From assembly GCA_018798825.1 (NCBI GenBank), contig CP076354.1:310001-374000 (forward strand): a DNA stretch of 64,000 nucleotides, given 5' to 3'. Shown in pieces: positions 19,268 to 41,700 of the stretch. Under the pieces are notes generated by a model. The model did no database searches. It was not told the DNA's origin and saw only the letters and a list, made by a program, of their open reading frames with translations. Numbering within the stretch: the stretch's first letter is position 1; each line of letters opens with the position of its first letter. This stretch comes from Ochrobactrum sp. BTU1. GTDB taxonomy: Bacteria > Pseudomonadota > Alphaproteobacteria > Rhizobiales > Rhizobiaceae. The position numbers and the translations under genes are program-made.

Positions 19268-19302
19268 AAAAAACCGGCCTCGCGAACACGCAAAAGGCCG
19301 GT
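19268..19302 (-). terminator. Riboswitch expression platform: terminator before metZ
   Basis: On the minus strand ACCGGCCT pairs with AGGCCGGT across a 14-nt loop, followed by TTTTTT. It lies between the aptamer and the metZ start. The 3' end of the aptamer (AAGGCC, minus strand, at 19314-19319) can instead pair with GGCCTT of the terminator's 5' arm, giving a plausible antiterminator. SAM binding would then favour termination. Confidence 0.8.
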
Positions 19303-19317
19303 AACGAACCGCGGCCT

Positions 19318-19370
19318 TATTTTAGCGAATTCTTTAACGTGGCTGCAAGCCGGCCGGCCAAATCACCACG
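19318..19370 (-). promoter_or_regulatory. SAM-II riboswitch controlling metZ
   Basis: Read on the minus strand, the region starts CGTGGTGATTTGGCC and continues GCTTGCAGCCACGTTAAAG and TCGCTAAAA. This is the SAM-II consensus: the CGTGG/CCACG P1 stem, the TGATTT loop, TTGCAG, then TTAAA and GCTAAA for the pseudoknot. SAM-II aptamers precede metA/metX/metZ genes in alphaproteobacteria. The metZ ATG is about 110 bp downstream, behind an intrinsic terminator. Confidence 0.92.
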
Positions 19371-19572
19371 GAACACTTTTTCCTTATGCCTCTTGGGCAG
19401 GGTCGTCAATGCTTGGAAGGTCAGTTTTCAGGAAAAGAGCTGCCGGTGAAAGGTGCTTGGCCTCTGATTCCTGCGGAAAACCCCGAAACCAAGGGCTTTG
19501 AGGGTTGGCATCGGTGCTTAGAGCGGTCAATGGTCTTAGACCAACTTTAAGTAATTTACGGAGTTCAGTGGT

Positions 19573-38534: not shown

Positions 38535-38825
38535 ACGTTGGGGAATCTTATTCTGTTAAGCCAGATAAACAGATTTAGTTAAAATCCGAAGATTACAAGT
38601 TTCGAACGCCCTCCTAACTCTATGGAGAGGTGTTTTGCCGATCACTTTTATCGCGGGCAGTAAAGAACTGCGTTACTGCGGGTCGCTCATTGTGTCAGCG
38701 CTGACGTCATTGCAGCCATGCAGTTTATGCACTTCTCAAAACGATTAAAAAGACGGAAGCTTCATATTGGGAGGAAGGTAAAAAGCTCAGCACTTAGAAG
38801 GTACTGAATATAAGGGGATACCACA

Positions 38826-38975
38826 ATGAACCACCTCCGTACCCAGTTTTCCCGTTGGATGCAGTATCGCGAAAATCTGCGCGAGTTGAGCGGTTGCACT
38901 GACCGCGAGCTTTATGATCTTGGTCTGACGCGTGATGACATCCATCGCGTAGCCCGTGAAGCAGCTTTCGCCTGA
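38826..38975 (+). CDS. DUF1127 small protein, 49 aa
   Basis: A short gene with AAGGGG eight bases before the ATG at 38826. The product has a basic amphipathic N-terminus (MNHLRTQFSRWMQYRENL) and the DUF1127 core LSGCTDRELYDLGLTRDDIHRVAREAAF. Short DUF1127 proteins in alphaproteobacteria have been tied to stress responses and to RNA/sRNA and phosphate or C1 metabolism; exact action here is unknown. A small hairpin CGCCTGA-TTAC-TCAGGCG overlaps the stop but lacks a T-run. The 290 bp upstream holds a 12-bp palindrome GTCAGCGCTGAC at 38694-38705, possibly an operator. Confidence 0.88.
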   Translation: MNHLRTQFSRWMQYRENLRELSGCTDRELYDLGLTRDDIHRVAREAAFA

Positions 38976-40747: not shown

Positions 40748-41429
40748 TCCCTATGTGGCGATGCTGTTTTGGTCAGCGGCCACAATCCTCCTTTACCTAG
40801 CAGCAAAGCGCGTCTACCGCCGCTTTCCAATGTGGTGGCTGACACCGCTTGCCGTTACACCATTGCTGCTGATGGCGCTTCTCATTGGCATGAATGAAAA
40901 TTATCGCAGCTACTTTGGCGCAACACATTGGCTTGTGGCTTTGCTTGGCCCTGCGACCGTAGCCTTTGCCATTCCGATCTATCAGCAACGCGCAACCATT
41001 CGTCGGTACTGGCCTGTTTTGCTGGTCGGTGTGGTGATGGGCAGTTCGTCGGCAATGCTCTCTGCGTGGGGTTTAGCGCATTTGCTTGGTCTTAACGATG
41101 CGATCAGCCTCAGTCTGATGCCGCGCTCGATGAGTACGCCTTTTGCCATGACGGTGTCCGGCGATATTGGCGGCACGCCTGATCTGACCGCAATCTTTGT
41201 GGTCATCACCGGCGTTTTTGGTGCAGCTCTGGGCGAACTCATGCTCAACTGGCTGCCATTGCGCTCGACGCTCGCACGCGGCGCGCTGTTCGGCATGGGC
41301 GCGCATGGTGCAGGCGTCGCCAAGGCGCACCAGATTGGCAGAGAAGAAGGTTCGATCGCTGGCCTCGTGATGGTGCTTGTAGGACTGGTCAATGTTCTGG
41401 CTGCACCTTTCATTGCCCATCTTCTCTGA
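40734..41429 (+). CDS. lrgB: LrgB/CidB-family membrane protein
   Basis: 231 aa from the ATG at 40734 inside the end of lrgA; a GTG three codons earlier is an alternative. The protein has about 7-8 membrane segments with the family motif LMPRSMSTPFAMTVSGDIGGTPDLTAIFVV and the terminal FGMGAHGAGVAKAHQIGREEGSIAGLVM. It forms a membrane unit with LrgA; reported roles include antiholin-like control of cell lysis and pyruvate transport. Expression probably follows the LysR regulator upstream. Confidence 0.92.
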   Translation: MPLSNPYVAMLFWSAATILLYLAAKRVYRRFPMWWLTPLAVTPLLLMALLIGMNENYRSYFGATHWLVALLGPATVAFAIPIYQQRATIRRYWPVLLVGVVMGSSSAMLSAWGLAHLLGLNDAISLSLMPRSMSTPFAMTVSGDIGGTPDLTAIFVVITGVFGAALGELMLNWLPLRSTLARGALFGMGAHGAGVAKAHQIGREEGSIAGLVMVLVGLVNVLAAPFIAHLL

Positions 41430-41527
41430 ATCATTGTTTTAGCAGCATATTTTTCTACAAATGCTTATTTAATGAGCAGGATTCTTATATTCACATTTTT
41501 GCAATAAACTTAAGCACCGGCGTATTT

Positions 41528-41542
41528 GCATAACTGTTATGC
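41528..41542. promoter_or_regulatory. Perfect palindrome in the sRNA promoter region
   Basis: GCATAAC-T-GTTATGC, perfect 7-bp arms around one base, about 20-30 bp upstream of the probable 5' end of the triple-hairpin RNA. It is placed where a regulator could act on the promoter; the regulator is unknown. Confidence 0.45.
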
Positions 41543-41559
41543 GTTATTGGTCGTTGTTG

Positions 41560-41700
41560 AATAAAGAGGCTCAAGGTAAACATTGCTCATCGGGTTCACT
41601 CCTCCTCCCAGAACCCGATGACGAATACGGCACTCCTCCTCCCAGCCGTATTCAAGATCAGGCCGCGCATCCTCCTCCCGCGCGGCCTTTTTCTTTTTCT
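41560..41700 (+). ncRNA. Trans-acting sRNA of the alpha-r14/cuckoo type, three anti-SD hairpins
   Basis: Three successive stem-loops, each displaying CUCCUCCC in the loop. SL1 at 41588-41620 has a perfect 10-bp stem and 13-nt loop ACUCCUCCUCCCA. SL2 at 41623-41653 has a 9-bp stem and the identical 13-nt loop. SL3 at 41661-41687 has an 8-bp GC stem followed by TTTTTCTTTTTCT, so it doubles as terminator. The loops are complementary to Shine-Dalgarno sequences. This is the hallmark of the alpha-r14 (NfeR1) and cuckoo sRNAs of Rhizobiales and the CcsR RNAs of Rhodobacter, which repress many mRNAs, including transporters. No ORF is present and the stems are conserved in pairing despite differing sequence. 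The 5' end is estimated. Confidence 0.85.

What the first reader, a model, noticed from the sequence alone, without database searches (positions are those of the whole stretch)
41528..41700. Triple-hairpin sRNA with three anti-Shine-Dalgarno loops
Three consecutive stem-loops expose CUCCUCCC. The first two have identical 13-nt loops on unrelated but fully complementary stems, and the third is the terminator. This is the alpha-r14/cuckoo design of broad translational repressors. A perfect GCATAAC-T-GTTATGC palindrome sits at the promoter and may be the control point. The sRNA is easily missed because it contains no ORF.
Basis: partly seen in the sequence, partly recalled or inferred. Interest (0 to 1): 0.75.

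Follow-up and report, generated by a model that had tools for sequence, protein, structure and literature searches.

The report
Known-family ar14 anti-Shine-Dalgarno small RNA
This is a small regulatory RNA of a known family (ar14, also called cuckoo RNA) that probably blocks ribosome-binding sites of certain mRNAs, and the palindrome in front of it looks like the binding site of a known regulator, VtlR/LsrB.

Summary
The window comes from the genus Brucella (Ochrobactrum side). Window 41582-41693 matches Rfam ar14 (RF02344) at 87.3 bits (cut-off 58.8), and the stems covary. It is one of six copies in this genome; all 34 other genus genomes searched have the family. So it is a new member of a known kind.

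The addition is the palindrome. It fits the published box of the LysR regulator VtlR/LsrB, which activates the ar14 RNA NfeR1 in Sinorhizobium meliloti. Perfect symmetry is incidental (5 of 34 orthologs). The box is not: of 34 genus ar14 loci examined (of 183 matched), 34 carry the dyad GCA-N9-TGC and 32 the strict box, either before the RNA (15) or before a DUF1127 gene followed by the hairpins (19); control 0 of 875 slots.

Bolder reading: VtlR drives the whole cuckoo-RNA set in Brucella, where the papers seen name AbcR2 and three DUF1127 proteins as its main targets. Nothing here shows transcription, binding or silencing.

The parts
41528..41542 (+). GCATAACTGTTATGC: VtlR/LsrB-type box (GCAT-N3-TG-N3-T), here a perfect palindrome; begins at -61 if transcription starts at 41589
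   Evidence: Exact in sequence; consensus in PMC7486931 and PMC8844928; same place in orthologs and paralogs
41554..41559 (+). -35 hexamer TTGTTG, predicted
   Evidence: Read from sequence; TTG part conserved in the aligned promoters
41577..41582 (+). -10 hexamer TAAACA, predicted, 17-nt spacer; a poor match
   Evidence: Read from sequence; partly conserved block
41589..41695 (+). predicted ar14 sRNA, about 107 nt
   Evidence: Rfam RF02344 match at 41582-41693, 87.3 bits; ends inferred from -10 and terminator
41587..41621 (+). hairpin 1, 13-nt loop 41598-41610 with CTCCTCCTCCC; covarying stem
41623..41653 (+). hairpin 2, identical 13-nt loop 41632-41644; nearly invariant among orthologs, covarying among paralogs
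41654..41660 (+). linker AAGATCA, invariant in 21 orthologs
41661..41698 (+). hairpin 3 (loop 41669-41679) plus U-run: intrinsic terminator that also shows the anti-SD motif
38707..38721 (-). second VtlR-type box in the window (GCATGGCTGCAATGA on the minus strand), upstream of a DUF1127 gene
   Evidence: 38708-38722 differs at one position from the published Brucella motif CAATGCAGCCATGCA (PMC12595884)
38826..38969 (+). DUF1127 small protein (47 aa), possible fellow member of the VtlR regulon
   Evidence: PF06568, 52 bits; no CTCCTCC in the following stretch searched

Best explanation
The element is a free-standing trans-acting sRNA gene of the ar14 (NfeR1/cuckoo) family. VtlR/LsrB binds the box at 41528-41542 just upstream of a sigma-70-type promoter and activates it. 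The RNA is about 107 nt with three stem-loops, each showing a CCUCCUCCC-type sequence like the 3' end of 16S rRNA. The loops pair with mRNAs whose ribosome-binding site reads (U)GGGAGGAG close to the start codon, many perhaps ABC-transporter components, and block translation. Shown by sequence: structure, covariation, family membership, box position, presence of a VtlR/LsrB ortholog. Inferred from the S. meliloti relative: activation by the regulator, base-pairing and silencing.
For: Rfam ar14 at 87.3 bits, gathering 58.8. Six copies over the cut-off in this genome. Matches at E<=0.001 in 45 of 60 genomes, own included, 37 of 60 over the cut-off; all 35 genus genomes are among them. Covariation: in 44 distinct stand-alone genus copies 93.6% of cells paired, 16 of 20 pairs changed on both sides, covariation score reached by 0 of 500 shuffles, slid controls at most 41% paired. 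Box: GCAT-N8-TGC 50-65 nt before CTCCTCCTCCCA in 35 of 35 genus genomes, reversed-pattern control 0 of 35. A LysR protein beside trxB scores 489 bits over its full length against 9HH1, the A. tumefaciens LsrB structure. In S. meliloti LsrB binds and activates the NfeR1 promoter and the three anti-SD motifs act redundantly (PMC10746234). TGGGAGGAG-N2-12-ATG occurs 19 times in this genome, reversed control 2; 15 of 19 lead into ORFs of 100 aa or more, and 9 of these 15 are ABC-transporter parts.
Against: No expression, binding or silencing data for this locus. The motif alone is weak: up to 3 mismatches it occurs 74+62 times in this genome against 64+54 for the reversed control, and GCAT-N3-TG-N3-T occurs 20 times in the window on both strands. 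In A. tumefaciens a genome search with the VtlR box found only one further site, and one VtlR-activated sRNA lacks the box (PMC7486931). The transporter bias is not significant: 9 of 15 versus 3 of 14 with another SD-type pattern, Fisher p 0.06; the control used 30 of its 37 matches. The -10 is poor. Not all covariation measures exceed the shuffles: 'further pair types' was 29 against a mean of 33.5 (500 of 500 shuffles as high) and 8 against 8.1 (499 of 500). Among 21 orthologs helices 2 and 3 hardly vary, so evidence there rests on four pairs of helix 1.
Confidence: 0.8

Rival explanations
1. It is an ar14 sRNA, but another regulator, or none, uses the palindrome; VtlR does not act on this copy.
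For: The motif is short and common. In A. tumefaciens most tested promoters with altered expression did not bind VtlR in gel shifts (PMC7486931). Two of 15 stand-alone loci (L005, L024), and 5 of 47 distinct stand-alone promoter segments of the genus, fit the dyad but not the strict box. Only one of six copies in S. meliloti was reliably detected by northern blot (PMC7143759).
Against: All 34 Brucella-genus loci examined keep the dyad at the expected place, 32 the strict box, control 0 of 875 slots. LsrB is the shown activator of the S. meliloti relative (PMC10746234).
Confidence: 0.15
2. The hairpins are a 3' untranslated region or terminator array of the upstream lrgB gene, not an independent sRNA.
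For: It lies on the same strand about 150 nt after lrgB (stop at 41429) and ends in a terminator.
Against: The promoter-plus-RNA unit is kept where the flanks differ: no lrgB match in the 7.5-8.5 kb around 3 of 7 orthologs fetched by region (L160, L161, L165). A separate terminator-like hairpin precedes the unit in a relative (L061). Own -35/-10 and conserved box.
Confidence: 0.03
3. It is a general brake on translation, imitating the 16S rRNA 3' end and occupying SD sequences at large, rather than a selective silencer.
For: Three near-identical short motifs, six copies in the genome, motif close to the ribosomal anti-SD.
Against: NfeR1 silences particular mRNAs (two ABC-transporter proteins and ntrB; PMC10746234). 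Full 9-nt matches shortly before ATG are few (19).
Confidence: 0.12

Closest known systems
NfeR1 (Smr14C2, SmelC397) of Sinorhizobium meliloti, alpha-r14 family, Rfam RF02344
   Same: Three hairpins with CCUCCUCCC loops, similar length (115 nt versus about 107), sigma-70 promoter, LTTR box upstream, multi-copy
   Different: NtrC repression is a feature of NfeR1 whose signature was reported as not evident in Brucella (PMC10746234); the TGC-N11-GCA match here is not kept in L060. Stem sequences were not compared directly with S. meliloti.
Cuckoo RNA family / CIN1 locus (DUF1127 gene with CcsR-type sRNAs, e.g. ccaF1-CcsR1-4 of Rhodobacter sphaeroides)
   Same: Same anti-SD hairpin modules; two sibling copies here (L002, L006) lie just behind a DUF1127 gene
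   Different: The window copy stands alone with its own promoter; the Rhodobacter locus uses an RpoHI/RpoHII promoter (PMC10253847)
AbcR1/AbcR2 (ar15, RF02345)
   Same: Anti-SD seeds, one member LsrB/VtlR-activated, transporter targets (PMC8844928)
   Different: Different covariance family; three separate loci here, one with the strict box; Hfq-binding

Membership tests
ar14 (RF02344) | Covariance-model score over the gathering cut-off | tested here: met
   87.3 versus 58.8 bits, full model 1-123
ar14 (RF02344) | Three hairpins each with CCUCCUCCC unpaired, stems variable in sequence | tested here: met
ar14 (RF02344) | Stem covariation among relatives | tested here: met
   helices 1 and 2; among orthologs alone only helix 1 is informative
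ar14 (RF02344) | Transcribed as a trans-sRNA of about 115 nt that silences mRNAs | not testable with these tools
   No expression data held
CIN1 / DUF1127-linked cuckoo locus | DUF1127 gene directly upstream on the same transcript | tested here: not met
   The DUF1127 gene found in the window (38826-38969) lies 2.6 kb away with three genes between. Met for sibling copies L002 and L006
VtlR/LsrB regulon | GCAT-N3-TG-N3-T upstream of the -35 | tested here: met
   41528-41540 exact
VtlR/LsrB regulon | Regulator encoded in the genome | tested here: met
   L172:1259-2164 minus, next to trxB; 9HH1 489 bits
VtlR/LsrB regulon | Regulator binds and alters expression | not testable with these tools
   Needs gel shift and mutant
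NtrC-repressed NfeR1 promoter | TGC-N11-GCA upstream of the LsrB box | tested here: inconclusive
   Present at 41462-41478 (read), but GCG in L060 and part of a terminator-like hairpin in L061

The most novel reading that the evidence does not exclude
In the genus Brucella, VtlR/LsrB controls the complete cuckoo-RNA set: free-standing ar14 genes through a box before their own promoter, and the rest as the 3' part of VtlR-activated DUF1127 mRNAs, which would then be double-purpose transcripts (small protein plus anti-SD RNA). The VtlR target lists seen here for Brucella (mainly AbcR2 and three DUF1127 proteins) would lack their main RNA arm because these RNAs are not annotated genes. That could explain why removing the four listed targets did not affect B. 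abortus virulence and restoring them singly did not rescue a B. melitensis vtlR mutant, as told in PMC12595884.
Probability: 0.5. Interest if true: 0.65.

Novelty: new member of a known kind. Interest (0 to 1): 0.4.

Why it matters
As a gene it adds one more ar14 RNA. The promoter finding matters more: the same regulator dyad stands before each of the 34 ar14 loci examined in the genus, including 19 that sit behind DUF1127 genes. This gives a concrete, testable answer to an open point in print, namely which VtlR targets are still missing in Brucella, and would extend LsrB control from one NfeR1 copy to a whole sRNA family.

Tried and rejected
A perfect palindrome as significant in itself: rejected (2 found, about 3.9 expected; 5 of 34 orthologs have it). 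NtrC repression: a TGC-N11-GCA match exists but is not kept in L060. Genome-wide enrichment of the box: not seen. Transporter bias among full-complement SD sites: suggestive only (9 of 15 versus 3 of 14). A coding role for the 78-aa ORF: rejected because of 1-nt indels between orthologs. PmaR of A. tumefaciens as a relative: its paper says its pairing region is not an anti-SD sequence (PMC6234868). The 2022 Brucella sRNA review held none of the terms ar14, r14, NfeR, anti-SD, Shine or hairpin (PMC9751625).

Rows dropped: in the target list 4 of 19 matches, with ORFs under 100 aa. In the SD control 16 of 30, short or duplicate, and 7 of 37 without a locus. In the covariation set 9 of 53 copies, from other genera, and two more (L070, L071) left out by the script; helix 3 was not counted because the alignment failed there. 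Of 183 ar14 matches in the 35 genus genomes (my sum), 34 were classified locus by locus: six own copies and the one locus returned for each of 28 other genus genomes.

Full report
WHAT IS THERE. The window lies in a 5.88-Mb, four-contig genome. An exact search for the palindrome followed by the first loop found two named records, Brucella pseudogrignonensis CCUG 30717 and Brucella sp. 21LCYQ03; the downstream protein is 98% identical to that of the first (L060). So the organism is an Ochrobactrum-type Brucella (inference). At 41582-41693 the Rfam model ar14 (RF02344) matches over its full length with 87.3 bits against a cut-off of 58.8. CCTCCTCCC occurs nowhere else in the window on either strand.

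FAMILY AND COVARIATION. Six ar14 copies pass the cut-off in this genome. Of 60 genomes, own included, 45 have a match at E<=0.001 and 37 pass the cut-off. All 35 genus members are among them, with 3 to 8 matches each; of the 25 others 10 have a match, 2 over the cut-off by subtraction. Reading the table, 34 of 35 genus genomes hold a copy alike in promoter and RNA to this one; the exception (G012) is listed as 72% complete. Flanking genes (LrgA and LrgB upstream, a glyoxalase-domain protein downstream) are kept in some orthologs and not in others, so the unit is independent of them. Among 21 distinct orthologs 96.9% of cells pair; four pairs, all in helix 1, show changes on both sides (6 of 500 shuffles reach four), and helices 2 and 3 are almost or wholly invariant. 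Among 44 distinct stand-alone copies of the genus, 16 of 20 pairs of helices 1 and 2 change on both sides, no shuffle reaches the observed covariation score, and slid controls pair at most 41%. One measure, the number of further pair types, did not exceed the shuffles in either count. Helix 3 was left out of the second count because the alignment did not hold there.

THE PALINDROME IS A REGULATOR BOX. VtlR (Brucella, Agrobacterium) or LsrB (Sinorhizobium) is a LysR-type regulator with the box GCAT-N3-TG-N3-T (PMC7486931, passages; PMC8844928, passages). The window palindrome fits it exactly. In S. meliloti the box of the abcR1 promoter lies at -61 to -49; here, with a start at 41589 inferred from the -10, it begins at -61. 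In S. meliloti LsrB binds and activates the promoter of the ar14 RNA NfeR1 (PMC10746234: abstract, passages, part 1 of the Discussion). An earlier promoter alignment that included Brucella is reported there to share a conserved upstream stretch, so the box in front of Brucella ar14 genes is at least implicit in print.

HOW FAR THE BOX REACHES. The pattern GCAT-N8-TGC followed after 50-65 nt by CTCCTCCTCCCA occurs in 35 of 35 genus genomes (89 places by my sum of the table) and in none when read backwards. Of 47 distinct stand-alone promoter segments of the genus selected by a pattern of that kind, 42 fit the strict box in one orientation or the other and 5 do not. I then classified the 35 loci L001-L035, which were fetched by ar14 score and not by the box: 15 are stand-alone with GCA-N9-TGC 71-72 nt before the first CTCCTCC; 19 follow a DUF1127-type ORF that itself has the dyad 96-118 nt upstream (two of these, L012 and L029, needed a second look); one, from another genus (L025), has neither. 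So 34 of 34 Brucella-genus loci carry the dyad and 32 of 34 the strict box in one orientation; L005 and L024 do not. In 875 control slots of 40 nt from the same loci the box was found 0 times. These loci are related by descent and are not independent, and they are 34 of 183 ar14 matches in the genus. In a draw of 297 genomes of the order, own included, the strict box with the loop motif was found in 17, and the reversed control in two; some of the 17 may be chance.

SAME REGULATOR, OTHER MEMBERS. In this genome seven DUF1127 matches were found, six over the cut-off. Three carry the strict box within 130 nt upstream of the domain (L086, L087, L089), two of them (L086, L087) with anti-SD motifs behind the gene. 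One more strong member (L088) has no strict box but does have a looser dyad, GCATGCCTCATTTGC, at -87. B. melitensis is similar: VtlR strongly activates three DUF1127 genes, while a fourth lacks the motif (PMC12595884, passages). Whether the genes correspond one to one was not tested. One of three ar15/AbcR copies has the strict box, at -63. The regulator itself is encoded beside trxB, as described for Rhizobiales (PMC11975290, passages), and scores 489 bits against the A. tumefaciens LsrB structure 9HH1.

TARGETS. The loop complement TGGGAGGAG followed by ATG within 2-12 nt occurs 19 times in the genome, reversed control 2. One match is the antisense of this RNA itself. Fifteen lead into ORFs of at least 100 aa: seven solute-binding proteins, two ABC ATPases and six others. 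With another SD-type pattern, 3 of 14 usable ORFs were transporter parts, Fisher p 0.06. This agrees with NfeR1, whose predicted targets are mostly ABC systems (PMC10746234), but it is not proof.

WHAT IS KNOWN AND WHAT IS NOT. Three- and four-hairpin anti-SD RNAs of Rhizobiales were described in 2011 (PMC3927594, passages) and are called alpha-r14 or cuckoo RNA; the link of CcsR-like RNAs to DUF1127 genes is called CIN1 (PMC10253847, passages; the cuckoo paper itself is not held). I found no paper that places the ar14 or DUF1127-linked RNAs in the VtlR regulon of Brucella. The searches were 'VtlR, sRNA', 'DUF1127, LsrB, small RNA', 'Brucella, NfeR1, VtlR' and 'Ochrobactrum, sRNA, LsrB, ar14, NfeR1, cuckoo RNA', of which I saw listings and, for some papers, passages. 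The B. melitensis VtlR paper does not use the words NfeR1, ar14 or cuckoo. The primary B. abortus paper on the three small proteins is not held. A 2021 paper on LsrB control of many sRNAs in A. tumefaciens is known to me only from a reference list and recall, and may cover part of this.

VERDICT. The added value is the regulator box, its presence before each of the 34 genus loci examined, and the resulting hypothesis that VtlR commands the whole set.

Noticed in passing
38707-38969: A DUF1127 gene with its own VtlR-type box lies 2.6 kb upstream of the sRNA, so the window may hold two members of one regulon.
   Followed up: partly
41623-41687: Helices 2 and 3 and the linker AAGATCA are almost letter-for-letter constant in 21 orthologs while helix 1 varies with compensation; pairing alone does not explain this.
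   Followed up: no
G001, G006, G008, G009, G011, G017, G022, G023, G028, G029: Ten of 35 genus genomes carry two boxed ar14 genes head to head a few hundred bases apart.
   Followed up: no
G000:C1:1172940-1172954 (L038): GCATAGCTGCTATGC with no ar14 match beside it; possibly another target of the same regulator.
   Followed up: no
41462-41478: TGC-N11-GCA, the NtrC-type motif of the S. meliloti NfeR1 promoter, but not kept in L060; in L061 the place looks like a terminator hairpin after lrgB.
   Followed up: partly
19299-19379, minus strand: SAM_alpha riboswitch (RF00521), 79.8 bits.
   Followed up: no
L012 and L029, first codons of the DUF1127 ORF: The coding sequence itself holds a CTCCTCC motif six bases after the start of its ATG in these two loci.
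   Followed up: no
L088 (G000:C2:863909-864019, minus): A fourth DUF1127 gene with a looser dyad GCATGCCTCATTTGC at -87 that fails the strict box.
   Followed up: no
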